Origin: a virus
DNA length: 42,082 nt
IMG/VR virus record: IMGVR_UViG_3300017963_000417
Location: 1-42,082 of that record
Reading direction: 5' to 3' (one strand)
Shown: positions 9,804 to 20,995 of the stretch, one piece after another
Numbering within the stretch: the first letter of the stretch is position 1
Layout: each line of letters starts with the position of its first letter
The notes under the pieces: model-generated
Databases searched by the model: none
The model's input: the letters and a program-made list of their open reading frames with translations, nothing else
What the model was told of the DNA's origin: nothing
Position numbers and translations under genes: made by a program

Positions 9804-10253
9804 ATGCGAGTCACCAAACGATTCAGTTGGGCAATGGCCCACCGACTGGGCCAGGGCTACCCGAAGGCCTGCAAGAACATCCACGGCCACACGTACCATT
9901 GCGAGGTGACGATCGAGTCCAGCACCCCGAATGAGTACGGAATGGTGATCGACTTCGGGGTGATCAAGTCATCGCTGGCTGGCTGGGTCAACAGTAACCT
10001 GGATCATGGAGTGCTGTTGGTCTGGGACGATCAGGAACTGATGGATATGCTGGCCGCATTGGGGTCCAAGTTCCACATGATGCCGGACAAGTACGACAAC
10101 ACCACTGCAGAGAACATCGCTCACATGTTGTTCCACGTCTTCGCACCGATCGTTGAGGAGTACCAGGACACGGTGCTGGACGAAGTCAAGGTGTGGGAAA
10201 CGGAGATGTCCTACGCCGCATTCAGCAGAAGGGATCATTGGCGATGCGACTGA
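9804..10253 (+). CDS. queD: QueD, 6-carboxytetrahydropterin synthase (149 aa)
   Basis: This member of the 6-pyruvoyl-tetrahydropterin synthase family converts dihydroneopterin triphosphate to 6-carboxytetrahydropterin in the 7-deazaguanine pathway. The zinc-binding histidines are His13 (WAMAHRLG), His27 and His29 (IHGHTY). The catalytic cysteine is Cys23 (KACKNIHGH), and LDHG and a late glutamate (WETE) are in their expected places. Length is normal. It begins one base after the primase stop with GGAGGG as ribosome site, and overlaps queE by 10 bases. It is the first gene of the DNA-modification operon. Confidence 0.93.
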   Translation: MRVTKRFSWAMAHRLGQGYPKACKNIHGHTYHCEVTIESSTPNEYGMVIDFGVIKSSLAGWVNSNLDHGVLLVWDDQELMDMLAALGSKFHMMPDKYDNTTAENIAHMLFHVFAPIVEEYQDTVLDEVKVWETEMSYAAFSRRDHWRCD

Positions 10254-10963
10254 ACCTGAACGAGATCACCGTGCCAACCATCCAAGGCGAAGGTGCCTGG
10301 ATGGGCCGGCCGAGCGTCTTCGTCCGAGTCCAAGGCTGCAGCATCCGATGCGGACGCTGCGACACCAAGAAGAGCTGGGACCAGGACGAGGGCACCACCT
10401 TCAGCATCGAGGCGATCTTGGCGGTACTGAAGGCCAACCCTCGGATCGATGTGGTCATCACTGGTGGGGAGCCGCTGGACCCGATGCATGTCGAAGGCGT
10501 GGCTGCACTCTGCAAGGCGTTGTTGGTGGCCGAGCATCCGGTCACAATCGAGACGTCTGGGATGGTGCCGTGGTTCGACCAGATCGAGGACATGCTGCAT
10601 TGGGTGGATCTCTGGTCGATCTCCCCCAAGCTGAGAGGCATGAGCCCGATGGTCGGCTCCCAGTTCAATGACGAGCTGATCGGCAGGATGACATACGGCC
10701 GAGGGAACGTCCAGCTGAAGTTCGTAGTGGACGTCCGCTGCGCTCACGACGAGATCAAGGACATCGGCGAGCTGATCGGCGACGGTGGGCTGGAGTGTGT
10801 GGAGCATCTGATCCTTCAGCCGATGACACGACCCAACGACGGTGTGAAGGCGATCCTGAAGGCGTGGGCTGATTTGGCCAAGATCGTGATGGGCGTGCCT
10901 TGGCTGGTGAAGCTGAGGCCACAGATCATACCGCAGTGCCACAAGCTGGTAGGGATGGTGTGA
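10244..10963 (+). CDS. queE: QueE, 7-carboxy-7-deazaguanine synthase, radical SAM (239 aa)
   Basis: This radical S-adenosylmethionine enzyme makes 7-carboxy-7-deazaguanine (CDG) from the QueD product. The Fe-S motif C-X3-C-X2-C is at Cys32, Cys36 and Cys39 (QGCSIRCGRC). VPTIQGEG, conserved in QueE, comes just before, and the TGGEP motif follows in VVITGGEPLDP. ATG 10244 is preceded by AAGGGA inside the end of queD, so the two are translationally coupled. In this window CDG is the last soluble precursor made by a recognised enzyme because no QueC is seen. Confidence 0.93.
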   Translation: MRLNLNEITVPTIQGEGAWMGRPSVFVRVQGCSIRCGRCDTKKSWDQDEGTTFSIEAILAVLKANPRIDVVITGGEPLDPMHVEGVAALCKALLVAEHPVTIETSGMVPWFDQIEDMLHWVDLWSISPKLRGMSPMVGSQFNDELIGRMTYGRGNVQLKFVVDVRCAHDEIKDIGELIGDGGLECVEHLILQPMTRPNDGVKAILKAWADLAKIVMGVPWLVKLRPQIIPQCHKLVGMV

Positions 10964-10964
10964 G

Positions 10965-11420
10965 ATGAAGCCGAAGCTGATAGTGGACTGGGGCTCGTAC
11001 GACACAGCGGTGGAGCAGCTGGCGGAGCGGATCCGCCTGGCGGGTGTAACGCCCGGGGGCGTGATGGGTGTTCCGCGTGGCGGGTTGATCGCTGCAGTGA
11101 TGCTCAGCCACCAGTTGGACGTACCGTTCGTGCCGTTCCGGAAGGATCGGATCACCTCCGACTTGCTGCTGGTGGACGACATCTGCGACACCGGTCACAC
11201 ACTGTCCAGCATCCTCGGGCCGCAGGACGGGACCGAAGTGCAGTACCGACCGTTGGCGATCGGTGTGGTGGTCTGCAAACCGAAGGGCTACCGGTACCTG
11301 GAAGAAGGTCTGTGGGAGCTGCGCACGTTCTTCGGCATGGCCGCAGCGACCGAGGACTGGATTGTGTTCCCCTACGAGATCGCAGAAACGGAGGATGGCT
11401 ACAATGGCACTGCGGGATGA
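10965..11420 (+). CDS. Phosphoribosyltransferase (151 aa)
   Basis: This is a type I phosphoribosyltransferase by its PRPP-binding motif LLLVDDICDTGHT (about residues 67-79) and the upstream MGVPRGGLIAAVML loop. Length matches small purine salvage enzymes such as xanthine or hypoxanthine phosphoribosyltransferase. It lies between queE and folE in a tightly packed operon. That makes a role in 7-deazaguanine metabolism possible, for example converting a deazapurine base to a nucleotide, but plain guanine salvage is equally possible. Substrate cannot be read from the sequence. Confidence 0.82.
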   Translation: MKPKLIVDWGSYDTAVEQLAERIRLAGVTPGGVMGVPRGGLIAAVMLSHQLDVPFVPFRKDRITSDLLLVDDICDTGHTLSSILGPQDGTEVQYRPLAIGVVVCKPKGYRYLEEGLWELRTFFGMAAATEDWIVFPYEIAETEDGYNGTAG

Positions 11421-12015
11421 AGACATCAGGTTTGACGACAACCTGCGCCGGGACAGGGCGATGGGGGCGATCACGATGTTCCTTCAGGCCCTGGGCCTGG
11501 ACATCGATTGCGAGGATCTCAGAGAGACCCCTCGCCGGATCACTGACATGTACGCCACATTCTTCCGTGGCCTGCCGGATGTTTGGACCCACGAAGGGCC
11601 ACCGGAGATCACGACGTTCACCAACGACGAAGGTGTCGAGGAGATGGTCCTGTTGAAGGACATCGAGTACGTGTCCGTCTGCAGCCATCACTTCCTGCCG
11701 TTCCACGGCAAGGCGGCCATCGCGTACGTGCCCGCCAAGAAGATCATCGGCATCTCGAAGCTGGCCCGGGTCCTGGACTACTTCGCCGCTCGGCCACAGC
11801 TGCAGGAACGGCTGACCAAACAGGTCGCGGACGGCATCCAGGACCTGTTGAAGCCGTGCGGTGTTGCTGTTCGGATCTGGGGTACTCACGGTTGCATCTC
11901 ACAACGGGGAGCGAAGAAGCCGGACAGCGTGATGGTCACGACTGTGATGACCGGCTGCTTCAAGGACGAGGAACTGCAGTGGCGTGATGCGTTCCTCAGG
12001 GAGGTGAATTCATGA
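11404..12015 (+). CDS. folE: GTP cyclohydrolase I (203 aa)
   Basis: This enzyme opens GTP to give dihydroneopterin triphosphate, the substrate of QueD. Visible family signatures are CSHHFLPFHG (zinc Cys and catalytic His), IGISKLARVLDYFAARPQ, QERLT and THGCISQRG with the second zinc cysteine. Length is near the bacterial norm. ATG 11404 has GGAGG ten bases upstream and overlaps the phosphoribosyltransferase by 17 bases. Encoding its own first step makes the phage less dependent on host folate enzymes. Confidence 0.94.
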   Translation: MALRDEDIRFDDNLRRDRAMGAITMFLQALGLDIDCEDLRETPRRITDMYATFFRGLPDVWTHEGPPEITTFTNDEGVEEMVLLKDIEYVSVCSHHFLPFHGKAAIAYVPAKKIIGISKLARVLDYFAARPQLQERLTKQVADGIQDLLKPCGVAVRIWGTHGCISQRGAKKPDSVMVTTVMTGCFKDEELQWRDAFLREVNS

Positions 12016-12272
12016 AGCCTGTTGGGTTCCCAGAGTCCAACAAGACACTCGCTCCCCCGAGGGGCATGACCGAAGAGGAGTGCAGCACTCTGGAGGTGTA
12101 TACCGATGGAGAACAATGCATCTCCTGTTGGGAACTGACAGACGAGGAACTGATGGAAGTGCTGCAGACTAAGCGGATCTGGGTCCATGTGTGGTTTGGT
12201 ATGACCCAGCCGCCAATCGCAGCTAGTGGCAAGTGCCCGTTCAAACGGGACGGAGAGGAAGACGACCAATGA
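12012..12272 (+). CDS. Small protein of unknown function in the modification operon (86 aa)
   Basis: ATG 12012 overlaps the folE stop (ATGA) behind AGGGAGGTG, and its own stop overlaps the ATG of the DpdA-like gene. The 86-residue acidic product has four cysteines (Cys24, two in EQCISCWE, and one in GKCPF). These could bind metal, but the spacing is not a standard zinc finger. A tryptophan-rich strand (IWVHVWFGM) lies in the middle. No family is recognised. Its position between two pathway genes suggests a link to base modification. Confidence 0.7.
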   Translation: MKPVGFPESNKTLAPPRGMTEEECSTLEVYTDGEQCISCWELTDEELMEVLQTKRIWVHVWFGMTQPPIAASGKCPFKRDGEEDDQ

Positions 12273-13186
12273 AGCTCGCACTGATCACACCGACGTCGGC
12301 GTTGAAGGACTTCGCCGTCCAATCGGACGGTATCCATCTGTGCCTGGTCCAGGAAGTACTGCGGGACGAAGCCTACGCCAGTTTCTATCGGGAGCGTAGC
12401 GATGTCGGCGACACCATCATCTTGGACAACGGCACGTTCGAGATGGGCAAACCGGCGCCGATGGAAGACATCATCAGGGCAGCCGAGATCGTAGATGCCG
12501 ATGTCGTTGTGGCGCCCGACTATCCGGACAAGCCGTGTGTGGACACCTTCAAGGCAGCAATCGACTTCTCCGAGGTGCTGCCGGCCAAGTACCGGATGAT
12601 GCTGGTGCCACAGAGCCTGATCGGGGACGTGCGGGACTGGCTGGACGGCATGGAAGCGGTCCTCTGCACCGAACAGAAGGTGACCGATCTGCTGAAACCG
12701 ATCATCGATCGGATCGAGATGGTCGGTGTCAGCATCCTGTCCTGTCCGAACGCCTTCGGGCCGATGATCGGGGACACCGAGCCCGAGATCTGCCGCTTCA
12801 CCGCCTTCCAGTTCCTGAAGTGCGTACTGCCGTGGCGGAAGGGCGTACGGCCGATCAAGATCCATTGCCTGGGTGGTGGTGCACGTCTGGACCTGATCCG
12901 CTACTACGATTGGGCGTTCAGCATGGACACCTCCTCGCCTGTCTGGCACGGCTGGTTCGGCACCGCCTACGAACACGGCTTCCTGCCATCCGGCAAGACC
13001 AAGACGCCGGTCAACTTCCAGGCCGAATGCCCCGATCTGTACAAGGGCGTGATCCAGAAGAACATCCGGCAGCTGAAGGCGTCCGCCAAGCAGGCCGAGA
13101 GCACGGCGCTCCGTTGCGCCTCCGAACTGGAGAAGGTGAGACCATGTGTGTCAGCCAATATGTCGAAGTTCGATTTCAGGTCGTAG
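12269..13186 (+). CDS. dpdA: DpdA-like DNA guanine transglycosylase (305 aa)
   Basis: The protein resembles the tRNA-guanine transglycosylase (TGT) superfamily in the short phage DpdA form. Such enzymes swap guanine in DNA for a 7-deazaguanine base. Visible landmarks of the TIM barrel are IILDNGTFEMG (about residues 50-60), VVVAPDYPDKP (about 79-89), KIHCLGGGARLDLI (the loop matching HVLGIG of TGT) and FSMDTSSPVW, whose Asp is a candidate nucleophile. The Cys-rich zinc site of bacterial tRNA TGT is absent, as expected for DpdA. Start and stop overlap neighbouring genes. The operon with folE, queD and queE strongly supports DNA modification. Confidence 0.85.
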   Translation: MKLALITPTSALKDFAVQSDGIHLCLVQEVLRDEAYASFYRERSDVGDTIILDNGTFEMGKPAPMEDIIRAAEIVDADVVVAPDYPDKPCVDTFKAAIDFSEVLPAKYRMMLVPQSLIGDVRDWLDGMEAVLCTEQKVTDLLKPIIDRIEMVGVSILSCPNAFGPMIGDTEPEICRFTAFQFLKCVLPWRKGVRPIKIHCLGGGARLDLIRYYDWAFSMDTSSPVWHGWFGTAYEHGFLPSGKTKTPVNFQAECPDLYKGVIQKNIRQLKASAKQAESTALRCASELEKVRPCVSANMSKFDFRS

Positions 13187-13518
13187 GTTTCCACAGCTGG
13201 CCGGACGCACCGAAGGAGCTGCTGTTCCTTCGCAACGTCCACCGACACACGTTCCACTTCCGTGTGCGGGCTTCGGTCAAGCACACCGACAGGGCGATCG
13301 AGTTCACGGTGATGAAGCGCTACCTGTACGAGGTGATTATCAGTCACTTTGGGCCCAACTGTGCCGCGGACTTCGGATCCAAGTCCTGTGAGATGTTGGC
13401 ACAGTGGCTGCACGACAACGCCAAGGAGTACACCGATGAGATCGTGGAGATCGGTGTCTCAGAGGACGGCGAGTTCGAAGGGATACTCCAATGGCATCAG
13501 ACCGTACGCCCTGGATAG
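13144..13518 (+). CDS. QueD/PTPS-like paralog lacking the catalytic cysteine (124 aa)
   Basis: Lining up with the QueD at 9804 is straightforward: FLRNVHRHTFHF here against ACKNIHGHTYHC there, IEFTVMKRYL against IDFGVIKSSL, and SCEMLAQWL against TAENIAHML. The zinc histidines (His17, His33, His35) are kept, but the catalytic Cys23 of QueD is Leu29. It is therefore probably not a carboxytetrahydropterin synthase. It may catalyse another pterin or deazapurine step, or be a structural subunit. The gene starts 43 bases inside the dpdA end with an internal AAGGTGAG ribosome site and overlaps mazG, so it is made together with DpdA. Confidence 0.72.
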   Translation: MCVSQYVEVRFQVVGFHSWPDAPKELLFLRNVHRHTFHFRVRASVKHTDRAIEFTVMKRYLYEVIISHFGPNCAADFGSKSCEMLAQWLHDNAKEYTDEIVEIGVSEDGEFEGILQWHQTVRPG

Positions 13519-13832
13519 AGATGCTGGAGGACTTCTATCGAGCGCACGGCCTTCCCCTCGGGGACGGCTCGATGCAGAACGCGCACTTCCACATGCTTCT
13601 CCTCACCGAGGAGGTGGGCGAGCTCGCCTCGGCTGTCAACAAACGGAAAGAGAACAAGACGGTTCCCGACGAGTTGGCAGACGTGTTGTACGTAGCCGTC
13701 GGCATGGCGGTGTCGATGGGCATCGACATCGAGGACGTGTTCCTCAGGATCCACAACGCCAACATGCGGAAGAAGCTAGCGAAGTTGGAGGAGCTCCGTG
13801 GTCGCCATACGAAAGCCAAAGGCAAAGCGTAG
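13491..13832 (+). CDS. mazG: MazG-like nucleotide pyrophosphohydrolase (113 aa)
   Basis: The all-helical MazG signature is present: EEVGE followed by DELADVLY (about residues 40-65), giving the EXXE and EXXD metal-binding motifs. These enzymes hydrolyse (d)NTPs to monophosphates and pyrophosphate. In phages they may clean non-canonical nucleotides or act on ppGpp. Next to a deazaguanine operon and before the DNA polymerase, control of the nucleotide pool is likely. ATG 13491 lies within the preceding gene and the end overlaps the polymerase by 35 bases. Confidence 0.88.
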   Translation: MASDRTPWIEMLEDFYRAHGLPLGDGSMQNAHFHMLLLTEEVGELASAVNKRKENKTVPDELADVLYVAVGMAVSMGIDIEDVFLRIHNANMRKKLAKLEELRGRHTKAKGKA

Positions 13833-18196: not shown

Positions 18197-18999
18197 CAGA
18201 TGCCCAACCTCTCGCATACCTTCGCCTTGAACCTCACATTGGCCGCACGACATTCCTCGAGGGCCCCGGGGTAGACCGGAGCATCCTTCACACGTTCCAG
18301 CACGGCTTCGTCGGACAGCTTGGCCAGAGGCAGGATCAACGGGGCGTGCCGCATGGCGTAGAACTTACTGGAGAACGGCACGGCGATGACCTTCCGGCCC
18401 AACAGCGTTGCCCAGTACGTGCCGTGGTAGGAACTGGTCACCACACACTCGCCAGAAGCCAGATGACTGAGCACCTTGAAGAAGTGTTCACCGGTGCCGT
18501 CGTCCTTGCCCAAGGCCACGGTGGCGCGATCGAACGTAGTAGCCTTCCGAAGCGGACGGGCTGGCTGCTCGTATGCCACAATGGCCTGTGTGGGAGCCTT
18601 TGCGCGGAACAACTCGAACACTGGCAGCATACAAGTAGGACAAGGCACCCAATCGCAGTCGGGCATGCCCCAGTCTCGCATGCCTCGCAGCTCGCAGGCC
18701 ATCAGCCAGTCCGGGTAGTCCGCTTGTTCCTTTCCCCAGAAGTCGTGCCCGTTGGACCACAGGACACGAGTGCCCTGGCAGTCCGCCAACATCTGCTTCA
18801 GGCGATCCTGCCAGGGCTCGTGGAACATGCCACCGCCTCCTACGATCAGGTCGCCGTCGAAGGACTGGCCGCCTCTCTGCTTGGTGTAGTTGTCGAAGCC
18901 GATCACTTCGTCGATCGGCAGATCGGGGAACAACTGCCACATGCCGTACAGTCGATTGGCCAGGTTGTTCGGATGATCGTAGTAGACGTTGAGCAACAC
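18196..18999 (-). CDS. Polysaccharide pyruvyl transferase-like protein (267 aa)
   Basis: GTG 18999 follows AGGAGGTGA. The family pattern is visible in the glycine-rich DLIVGGGGMFHEP (about residues 50-62) and in VVTSSYHGTYWATLLGRK (about 200-217), which resembles the substrate-binding motif of CsaB/WcaK-type enzymes. These add pyruvate ketals to sugars of cell-wall polymers or exopolysaccharides. A CPTC motif near residue 117 could bind metal. It overlaps the downstream glycosyltransferase by three bases. The target is unknown. Confidence 0.72.
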   Translation of the reverse strand: MLLNVYYDHPNNLANRLYGMWQLFPDLPIDEVIGFDNYTKQRGGQSFDGDLIVGGGGMFHEPWQDRLKQMLADCQGTRVLWSNGHDFWGKEQADYPDWLMACELRGMRDWGMPDCDWVPCPTCMLPVFELFRAKAPTQAIVAYEQPARPLRKATTFDRATVALGKDDGTGEHFFKVLSHLASGECVVTSSYHGTYWATLLGRKVIAVPFSSKFYAMRHAPLILPLAKLSDEAVLERVKDAPVYPGALEECRAANVRFKAKVCERLGI

Positions 19000-19009
19000 G
19001 GGTCACCTC

Positions 19010-19480
19010 CTACTTGGCTTGCTTCGCTTCCCGCTTCCTGCGGTTCACAATGCCGGAGATCAGCGCCATCACCTTGGCCTGCGGCGTGGTGGCCATCAGG
19101 ATCTTGGCTCCGATCCCCATCGCGGACTTCGCTCGGTCCAATGCCAGCTCTCGGGCCTTCTGCTTCTCGTCTTCCTTCAGCTTCTTGCCGTCGAGCTTCT
19201 TCTCCTTGACGTACTCTTCCCAGGCGTTGTTGACGCCCACCTCGAGTCCGTCCAGCATTGCCTGGAGCCACGCCTTGCCCACGGCCTTCTTACCGAGCCA
19301 GGCAAACACTGCAGCGATCACCAACGACACCATCTGCCCCAGACCACCGCCCGGGATGGCGTCCAGCACGCCCTCGCCATCCGCAGCTACTTCCACGGCC
19401 GGCCCTGCCTCCTGGGCGAACACCACCATCGGAAGCAGCACAGCAAACGCCACGATCAACGCCGCCATCAGATACCGCAT
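19010..19480 (-). CDS. Exported or membrane protein, possibly holin-like (156 aa)
   Basis: ATG 19480 has GAAAGGAGGG upstream. Residues 1-22 form a hydrophobic signal-like segment (MRYLMAALIVAFAVLLPMVV) ending in a possible FAQ cleavage site. A second hydrophobic helix lies near residues 45-65 (MVSLVIAAVFAWLG). The rest is a long charged helix with many Lys and Glu, and a basic C-terminus. The topology fits some small phage holins of the LLH type, but no endolysin is nearby, so this remains a guess. An alternative is a membrane anchor for the neighbouring glycan enzymes. Confidence 0.6.
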   Translation of the reverse strand: MRYLMAALIVAFAVLLPMVVFAQEAGPAVEVAADGEGVLDAIPGGGLGQMVSLVIAAVFAWLGKKAVGKAWLQAMLDGLEVGVNNAWEEYVKEKKLDGKKLKEDEKQKARELALDRAKSAMGIGAKILMATTPQAKVMALISGIVNRRKREAKQAK

Positions 19481-19504
19481 GCGTCCCTCCTTTCAAGAGG
19501 TTGG

Positions 19505-20995
19505 TTACTCGTCACCGCCAAGCAGACCGAGGACCCGGCGTTCCACAAGCCGCGGCTTCAGGTCCTGCATCAAGCCACAGCCCCAGGAACACCAGTGCTT
19601 CCAGCCGTTGTCCTGGTAGTAGGAGCACCCAGTGCAGCTGCCCGGTGCCTGCATCACCTTCACTGTCGGCCAGCCACCGAAGACCACATCACCGTTGGTG
19701 ACACCGCAGATCGCCAATGCCTTGCTCTTCACCCAGCCGGCCAAGTGGGCCATGCCGCTGTCATTGCCCACCAGCACATCGGTCTGCTGAATCACGGCAG
19801 CGATGAGGTGCTCGTCATCGGACATGAAGCGACGTGCCGGGATACGGAACACGTGATGCTTCTTGTCCCGTGGCCGATCGATCAGGTAGACCGCTACGCC
19901 CTGCTTCTTCAGGCGATCGATCAGTTCGTGGTAGCAGCGCAAAGGCCATTGCCGCATCGCACTGTTGGCAAACGGTACGACAGCCACGATCGGCCGGCCG
20001 TCCCGTTTGGGCAGCTTCAGGAACTCAGCGGCCTTCTCACGGGCCTCGTTCCTGATCTTGATGTCCCAGCCCTCGATCTCATGGAACGGGATGTCGAACT
20101 GCTTGGCGAAGAACTGATGCCGGTTCCAGCCGTACAGCTCACAGGTGGCGTCCATCTCGATCATTCGCAATGGTGAAGAGTGGCAGGCGAACTCGCCCAC
20201 ACGACGATCCTCGTCAGTCAAGTCCAACACCGGGACCCGATCACAGGCCGCCAGACGAGCCCAGTGCATCCGTTGCGGCACCGTTGTTACGCGTACCTGG
20301 ATTCCCTGTGCCTTGTTGATACGGTCCAACGCCTGGACGATCACACCCTGCATCATCGTATCACCGATGCCGGCACAGTCGATCGCATTGCCGTCTGCAA
20401 TCCGGGCCGGGCCGATGAAGTCGAACGTCTTCGGTAGCGGCTCGTGCCGAGTCACCACGTGGATCGGCAGAACAACGGTGTCGAAGTACTTGCCAGGACC
20501 CCACAGGCCTCGAGGGCATCTGGACTGGACCCACTTGGCCCGCTCTGCTACGTTGCAGCCACAGCCGTAGCGTTCCGGATGCTCCAACGTAGCGTCGTTC
20601 TCCGGATCGCCACAGTAGATGTGGCCGTCCAACTCACGCTTGATCGGTTCCAGCGTGTCGTCACCGTTCTCATCCCACACCAACTGCTTGCAGACCTTGC
20701 AGATGTCCACACGCATCCGTGTGATGGACGGCTCTTCGCGACGGGGATGATCGATGTCCTCTGGCGGGTCCTTTGGCTCGATAGGCAGGACCTCGTTGCC
20801 GACGATCTTCTTCGGCTCGTCAGTCTGCTGACCGGAGATGTGCACTCCGTCGTGGGCGATGGTGATGACTGGCATTCGGTCACGCGGCGCCTCGGGCGCC
20901 TGCTTCTTCTTGCCTCCACAACCACCGCACGTCTTCCTGGTCTTCTTCCCAACCGGTTGCGTCGTCTTCTTCTCGCCATTCGTGTTGCCGGTCAC
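19505..20995 (-). CDS. GT9-like (heptosyltransferase-type) glycosyltransferase with Cys-rich N-terminus (496 aa)
   Basis: The C-terminal two thirds resemble ADP-heptose LPS heptosyltransferases: GPARIADGNAIDCAGIGD in the first lobe, VAVVPFANSAMRQWP, then TDVLVGNDSGMAHLAG (about residues 405-420) in the nucleotide-sugar lobe. About 190 residues precede this. They include a KTCGGCGGKKK cluster near residue 25 and further cysteine pairs (CKVCKQ, YGCGCN) that could bind metal. A last Cys-rich patch (GSCTGCSYY, HWCSWGCG) lies near the end. The start is GTG 20995. Its place right after the tail-hub gene suggests it acts on virion or host surface glycans; acceptor unknown. Confidence 0.75.
   Translation of the reverse strand: MTGNTNGEKKTTQPVGKKTRKTCGGCGGKKKQAPEAPRDRMPVITIAHDGVHISGQQTDEPKKIVGNEVLPIEPKDPPEDIDHPRREEPSITRMRVDICKVCKQLVWDENGDDTLEPIKRELDGHIYCGDPENDATLEHPERYGCGCNVAERAKWVQSRCPRGLWGPGKYFDTVVLPIHVVTRHEPLPKTFDFIGPARIADGNAIDCAGIGDTMMQGVIVQALDRINKAQGIQVRVTTVPQRMHWARLAACDRVPVLDLTDEDRRVGEFACHSSPLRMIEMDATCELYGWNRHQFFAKQFDIPFHEIEGWDIKIRNEAREKAAEFLKLPKRDGRPIVAVVPFANSAMRQWPLRCYHELIDRLKKQGVAVYLIDRPRDKKHHVFRIPARRFMSDDEHLIAAVIQQTDVLVGNDSGMAHLAGWVKSKALAICGVTNGDVVFGGWPTVKVMQAPGSCTGCSYYQDNGWKHWCSWGCGLMQDLKPRLVERRVLGLLGGDE

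What the first reader, a model, noticed from the sequence alone, without database searches (positions are those of the whole stretch)
9804..13518. 7-deazaguanine DNA-modification operon that stops at CDG (no QueC)
FolE, QueD, QueE and a DpdA-like transglycosylase lie in one tight operon with a phosphoribosyltransferase and two unexplained small proteins. Seen: the zinc, Fe-S and TGT-like motifs. Known: FolE-QueD-QueE make 7-carboxy-7-deazaguanine, QueC makes preQ0 from it, and DpdA-family enzymes insert deazaguanines into phage DNA. Inference: with no QueC or amidotransferase-QueC fusion here, the inserted base may be CDG or a derivative made by the unknown genes, unless QueC is elsewhere in the phage or supplied by the host. 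Such modification would protect against restriction.
Basis: partly seen in the sequence, partly recalled or inferred. Interest (0 to 1): 0.85.

Follow-up and report, generated by a model that had tools for sequence, protein, structure and literature searches.

The report
Phage operon for 7-deazaguanine DNA

Summary
The operon is real: eight overlapping or abutting genes at 9804-13832, QueD, QueE, a Gpt-like phosphoribosyltransferase, FolE, an 86-aa protein, a DpdA-like transglycosylase, a QueD paralogue and MazG. The record has no QueC, nor does the closest relative, a 52-kb contig.

The reading 'stops at CDG' is only partly supported. The 'unexplained small protein' at 13144-13518 is a QueD-fold enzyme: three zinc histidines and the substrate glutamate kept, catalytic cysteine lost, a new invariant Ser-Cys-Glu. 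It matches what I remember as DpdL, the predicted CDG decarboxylase of Cui et al. 2023 (paper not readable here). In IMG/VR it replaces QueC: of 41 DpdA-bait loci with at least two of FolE/QueD/QueE, 40 carry it and none has QueC; of 48 QueC-bait loci none carries it. It pairs with three different DpdA families (73 of 74 loci).

The transglycosylase has a TGT-like predicted fold and is homologous to a Campylobacter phage CP220 protein (DpdA3 class, from memory).

Best explanation: GTP to CDG by FolE, QueD, QueE; CDG to 7-deazaguanine by the DpdL-like protein; exchange for guanine in DNA by DpdA. Chemistry untested. New member of a known kind.

The parts
9804..10253 (+). QueD (6-carboxy-tetrahydropterin synthase), 149 aa, with the CxxxHGH catalytic/zinc motif
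   Evidence: Pfam PTPS 7e-29, PHROG QueD 8e-29; ATG after a GGAGGG-like site
10244..10963 (+). QueE (7-carboxy-7-deazaguanine synthase, radical SAM), CxxxCxxC cluster motif
   Evidence: PHROG QueE 1.4e-34, Radical_SAM 4.6e-9
10965..11420 (+). Gpt/XGPRT-like phosphoribosyltransferase (151 aa); proposed guanine salvage
   Evidence: Pribosyltran 6e-9, NCBIfam xanthine PRT 7e-9; detected in 22 of 80 DpdA-bait stretches and 25 of 74 DpdL-bait stretches
11404..12015 (+). FolE (GTP cyclohydrolase I)
   Evidence: Pfam 1.8e-57, TIGR00063 over cut-off
12012..12272 (+). 86-aa protein, probably a passenger: a different gene fills this slot in the closest relative
   Evidence: PHROG 25433 7e-11; a homologue in Faecalibacterium phage Roos, not next to its DpdL-like gene; L010 has an unrelated 205-aa ORF here
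12269..13186 (+). DpdA-like DNA guanine transglycosylase, 305 aa (DpdA3-like by homology to a CP220 protein)
   Evidence: AF2 pLDDT 91.3; Foldseek best hits TGT (2e-6), also DpdA 7ui4 (5e-5); D53, D84, Q115, H199, D220 invariant in 65 homologues; CP220 homologue at 2.8e-19
13144..13518 (+). DpdL-like QueD paralogue, 124 aa; proposed CDG decarboxylase
   Evidence: AF2 pLDDT 88; best PDB hits E. coli QueD, 9.6e-7; H17, H33, H35, S81, C82, E83, E107 invariant in 60 homologues, QueD catalytic Cys position is Leu in all 60; mutually exclusive with QueC
13491..13832 (+). MazG-like nucleotide pyrophosphohydrolase, also next to the DpdL-like gene in L010 and phiST
   Evidence: MazG 7.9e-11

Best explanation
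A phage 7-deazaguanine DNA-modification operon of the DpdL kind. FolE, QueD and QueE convert GTP to 7-carboxy-7-deazaguanine (CDG). The QueD-fold DpdL-like protein then removes the carboxyl group to give 7-deazaguanine, taking the place that QueC has in preQ0-type phages. The DpdA-like transglycosylase exchanges guanines in phage DNA for this base after replication, giving 2'-deoxy-7-deazaguanosine, perhaps with some residual carboxy form. The Gpt-like phosphoribosyltransferase probably turns the released guanine back into GMP. The loss of N7 would blunt host restriction enzymes. Shown here: genes, motifs, predicted folds, conserved synteny, exclusivity with QueC. Inferred: the decarboxylation, DNA as the target, the base, and the role of the phosphoribosyltransferase.
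For: Operon and gene identities. QueC absent from the record, from its 52-kb closest relative, and from 53 of 55 records behind the loci; the two exceptions are short partial matches, one in an ORF with a degenerate PP-loop, SGIDS instead of SGGxDS. DpdL-like fold and residues. Exclusivity with QueC: 40/41 DpdA-bait loci with DpdL-like and 0 with QueC; 0/48 QueC-bait loci with DpdL-like; after thinning by bait protein 32/33 and 0/43; within DpdA3-like loci 40 DpdL-only, 16 QueC-only, 0 both, 1 neither, Fisher p 3e-13. In named phages, 9g, CAjan, nt-1, Dp-1, CP220 and phi38:2 have QueC and no DpdL-like match, while phiST, ACP17, PA5oct and seven others have the DpdL-like gene and no full-length QueC match. 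It pairs with DpdA1-, DpdA2- and DpdA3-like families in 73 of 74 DpdL-bait loci, as expected of an enzyme that makes the base and not the one that inserts it. DpdA-like fold and homology. FolE2 is found in 10 of 30 FolE-less DpdA-bait stretches and never beside FolE, which suggests an intact pathway from GTP.
Against: No enzyme activity or base was measured. The identification with published DpdL, and the statements about dDG, dCDG and DpdA3, rest on my memory of the abstract of Cui et al. 2023, which could not be opened; no text read here says that published DpdL is a QueD paralogue. Sequence-level matches of the DpdA-like family to DpdA1 and DpdA2 are weak (hhalign E 0.017-0.066), and its TM-scores to TGT are about 0.45-0.5 with long gapped alignments. 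The TGT zinc cysteine cluster was not seen by eye. The record is a fragment and its host is unknown.
Confidence: 0.7

Rival explanations
1. CDG itself is inserted: DpdA uses CDG and the DpdL-like protein has another role (chaperone, regulator, or an enzyme on another pterin).
For: No QueC. The 2019 survey suggested CDG for Mycobacterium phage Bipper, which lacks QueC (PMC6884629); Bipper also has no DpdL-like match. From memory, dCDG was later detected in phage DNA (Cui et al. 2023).
Against: A diverged enzyme with invariant metal and substrate residues sits in the operon and replaces QueC across phages with three DpdA families.
Confidence: 0.15
2. CDG leaves the phage pathway and host QueC converts it, so that the DNA carries preQ0 or a derivative.
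For: The host is unknown and many bacteria carry QueC (control genomes).
Against: Phages known or predicted to use preQ0-type bases carry their own QueC, and those examined lack the DpdL-like gene; this would leave the DpdL-like enzyme without a purpose.
Confidence: 0.07
3. The base enters at nucleotide level: the phosphoribosyltransferase turns the deazaguanine base into a nucleotide, MazG removes dGTP, and the polymerase incorporates it.
For: A Gpt-like enzyme and MazG lie in the operon, and phages that change dNTP pools are known.
Against: A DpdA-family protein accompanies the DpdL-like gene in 73 of 74 loci, while the phosphoribosyltransferase is detected in only about a third and also occurs in QueC loci. 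Post-replicative exchange is the known route for these bases.
Confidence: 0.06
4. An auxiliary set for tRNA (queuosine-type) modification, with the TGT-like protein acting on tRNA.
For: TGT fold; FolE, QueD and QueE are shared with the tRNA pathway.
Against: No QueC was found, and queuosine needs preQ0/preQ1. The transglycosylase has no Pfam match to TGT and its homologue is in CP220, a phage reported with deazaguanine in its DNA (memory; the 2019 paper mentions dADG in Campylobacter phages, PMC6884629).
Confidence: 0.02

Closest known systems
Phage DpdL/dDG-type 7-deazaguanine systems (Cui et al. 2023 NAR 51:9214; from memory, paper not held), with Cellulophaga phage phiST as genomic comparator
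   Same: phiST carries QueD, QueE, FolE, MazG, the DpdL-like gene and a homologue of this DpdA-like protein within about 4 kb, without QueC
   Different: Gene order and the extra phosphoribosyltransferase and 86-aa gene; protein identities are low, about 34% for the DpdL-like protein and 20% for the DpdA-like one
preQ0/G+-type phage systems (9g, CAjan, nt-1; PMC6884629)
   Same: FolE, QueD, QueE and a DpdA family member in one cluster
   Different: They have QueC and no DpdL-like gene; their DpdA1/DpdA2 proteins are only remotely related to this one
Campylobacter phage CP220 (DpdA3 class, from memory)
   Same: A 263-aa homologue of this transglycosylase with LDNSLFE, VPDALGD, HLLG and SLDTSNP motifs
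   Different: CP220 has QueC and no DpdL-like match
Mycobacterium phage Bipper
   Same: Described in PMC6884629 as lacking only QueC and perhaps modified by CDG; QueC absent here too
   Different: No DpdL-like or DpdA3-like match

Membership tests
Phage 7-deazaguanine DNA-modification (Dpd) system | CDG-forming enzymes FolE, QueD, QueE encoded together | tested here: met
Phage 7-deazaguanine DNA-modification (Dpd) system | A DpdA/TGT-family transglycosylase in the cluster | tested here: met
   Predicted TGT-like fold, conserved motifs, homology to a CP220 protein and the phiST protein; sequence link to DpdA1/2 is weak
Phage 7-deazaguanine DNA-modification (Dpd) system | 7-deazaguanine derivative present in virion DNA | not testable with these tools
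   Metagenomic record; no DNA to assay
preQ0/ADG/G+ subtype | QueC or amidotransferase-QueC fusion | tested here: not met
   PF06508 absent from the record and from the closest relative G001; the record is incomplete
DpdL (CDG decarboxylase, predicted) | Member of the protein family that the authors named DpdL | not tested
   Source paper not held; assignment rests on memory and on homologues in phiST and ACP17
DpdL (CDG decarboxylase, predicted) | QueC absent, CDG enzymes and DpdA present | tested here: met
DpdL (CDG decarboxylase, predicted) | Decarboxylase activity on CDG | not testable with these tools
   Needs enzymology
QueD (CPH4 synthase) | Catalytic Cys in CxxxHGH (second PTPS-fold protein, 13144-13518) | tested here: not met
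   Leu in 60 of 60 aligned homologues; motif LxxxHRH in 154 of 157 wider hits
DpdA3 | Membership in the published DpdA3 subfamily | tested here: inconclusive
   Profile match to a CP220 protein at 2.8e-19; that this protein is the published DpdA3 is from memory

The most novel reading that the evidence does not exclude
The DpdL-like enzyme opens a branch in which CDG is made into a base that is decorated further. A GT4-like protein lies beside the DpdL-like gene in 53 of 74 DpdL-bait loci (48 of 49 DpdA2 loci) but in 1 of 80 QueC-bait loci, so many such phages may carry glycosylated deazaguanine. This window lacks that family, but it has an unrelated GT9-like gene at 19508-20995.
Probability: 0.12. 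Interest if true: 0.8.

Novelty: new member of a known kind. Interest (0 to 1): 0.5.

Why it matters
It replaces 'a pathway with a missing step' by a testable branch point: after CDG, phages carry either QueC or a diverged QueD paralogue, not both, in every locus examined. If the paralogue decarboxylates CDG, that would be an unusual chemistry on the pterin-synthase fold.

Tried and rejected
Single-sequence scans of IMG/VR with the DpdA-like and DpdL-like proteins found nothing; alignments were needed. Pfam, NCBIfam and PADLOC did not identify the DpdA-like protein. Profile searches of PDB sequences gave only chance-level matches; fold comparison was decisive. The 86-aa protein was considered as a pathway enzyme and rejected: not conserved in the operon. 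The QueC matches in D479 and G029 were examined and set aside as short partial matches. The key 2023 paper and a 2024 review are not in the library.
Full report
What is there. The window is a 42,082-base IMG/VR virus record. On the + strand, 9804-13832 holds eight genes in one run: QueD, QueE, a phosphoribosyltransferase, FolE, an 86-aa protein, a DpdA-like protein, a second QueD-fold protein and MazG; neighbours overlap by 4-43 nt or lie 1 nt apart, and all frames are intact. The run begins 1 nt after a primase-helicase gene and continues into a family A DNA polymerase. QueD, QueE, FolE, the phosphoribosyltransferase and MazG are identified by profile matches.

The transglycosylase. It matches no Pfam, NCBIfam or PADLOC family. 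Its AlphaFold2 model (pLDDT 91.3) has tRNA-guanine transglycosylases as its 12 best PDB matches (best E 2e-6), with the bacterial DNA preQ0 insertase DpdA (7ui4) at 4.4e-5; TM-scores are modest, about 0.45-0.5. Across 65 homologues the residues D53, N54, D84, P114, Q115, S155, H199, G202 and D220 are invariant (numbers are for the full protein, one more than in the alignment). The motifs DNxxFE, HxLG and S-x-DxSS line up with DSGAFS, HxFG and SCDSS of phage 9g DpdA in a weak profile alignment. The family also finds a 263-aa protein of Campylobacter phage CP220 at 2.8e-19 with the same motifs, and proteins of Cellulophaga phage phiST and Chryseobacterium phage MA9V-3. From memory, CP220-type phages define DpdA3; I could not check this.

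The small protein that explains the missing step. The gene at 13144-13518 has a borderline PTPS match. Its model (pLDDT 88) has E. coli QueD as the best PDB match (9.6e-7). In 60 homologues the three presumed zinc histidines (H17, H33, H35), E107 and a new S81-C82-E83 are invariant, while the position of the catalytic cysteine of QueD (four before H33) is leucine in all 60. The operon also has a normal QueD with CxxxHGH, so this is a second, diverged copy with another job. Homologues occur in 26 phage records, among them phiST and ACP17.

QueC or DpdL-like, not both. Three alignment-based scans of IMG/VR with the DpdA-like, QueC and DpdL-like families as bait gave 80 loci each; 6 of the last set were already held, so 74 new ones were counted (a few of these lie in contigs of the first set). 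Among DpdA-bait loci with at least two of FolE/QueD/QueE, 40 of 41 carry the DpdL-like gene and none has QueC; among such QueC-bait loci none of 48 carries it; none of the 74 DpdL-bait loci has QueC. Thinned by similarity of the bait protein the counts are 32/33 and 0/43. Within DpdA3-like loci: 40 DpdL-only, 16 QueC-only, 1 neither, 0 both (Fisher p 3e-13). Relatedness among loci makes the p-value only indicative, and absence from a stretch is not absence from a genome. Whole records point the same way: QueC was found in 2 of 55, both short partial matches on inspection, while a PTPS was found in 38 of 55. Phages with full QueC (9g, CAjan, nt-1, Dp-1, CP220, phi38:2) have no DpdL-like match. 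Xanthomonas phage X1, which has the DpdL-like gene, gave one below-cut-off QueC match.

The DpdL-like gene goes with three DpdA families: DpdA2-like in 49, DpdA3-like in 13 and DpdA1-like in 11 of 74 loci, 73 of 74 in all. This fits an enzyme acting on the free base. FolE2 occurs in 10 of 30 FolE-less DpdA-bait stretches and in none with FolE.

Mechanism. FolE, QueD and QueE give CDG (established pathway; PMC13329287). Decarboxylation by the DpdL-like protein is inferred: no ATP-binding motif as in QueC was seen, the guanine/pterin-type glutamate and metal site are kept, and it replaces QueC. The phosphoribosyltransferase occurs with both QueC and DpdL-like sets, which fits general recycling of released guanine better than tailoring of one base; this is inference.

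Completeness. The record has tail, capsid, scaffold and connector genes, but no terminase or portal was found among the proteins scanned. The closest relative found, G001/L010 (52 kb; DpdA-like 47-48% identical), keeps the gene order, has a portal and head genes in the part missing here and has no QueC.

Known or new. A DpdA-inserted base without QueC was foreseen for phage Bipper (PMC6884629). From memory, Cui et al. 2023 found dDG and dCDG in phages and predicted a CDG decarboxylase, DpdL; the paper is cited in papers read here but not held. I therefore file this as a new member of a known kind. If the family described here is not the published DpdL, it would rise to a new variant.

Noticed in passing
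L194-L267, e.g. also L005:6957-7985, L099:6357-7448: A GT4-like protein family (weak Pfam support; Phosso copy annotated glycosyltransferase) lies near the DpdL-like gene in 53 of 74 DpdL-bait loci, almost always with DpdA2, and in 1 of 80 QueC-bait loci.
   Followed up: partly
L078:1879-2946 and homologues: A second conserved family with marginal glycosyltransferase matches lies about 1.7 kb downstream of the DpdA start in 49 loci, before the sliding clamp gene; it may be a phage core gene.
   Followed up: partly
L012:7429-8487 and nine other loci: FolE2 (GCHY-1) found in DpdA loci without FolE.
   Followed up: partly
window 18199-20995, - strand: A GT9/heptosyltransferase-like gene (7.6e-15) and a gene with a weak polysaccharide pyruvyl transferase match; the GT9 gene has no homologue in the other loci.
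   Followed up: no
window 12012-12272: The 86-aa protein has a homologue in Faecalibacterium phage Roos, not next to that phage's DpdL-like gene.
   Followed up: partly
L090:1336-2142: Vibrio phage D479 has a QueC-like protein with SGIDS in place of SGGxDS, outside its FolE/DpdL/DpdA cluster.
   Followed up: no
L003:2102-3253: In Vibrio phage Bakedbeans the DpdL-like domain is the C-terminal part of a 383-aa protein.
   Followed up: no
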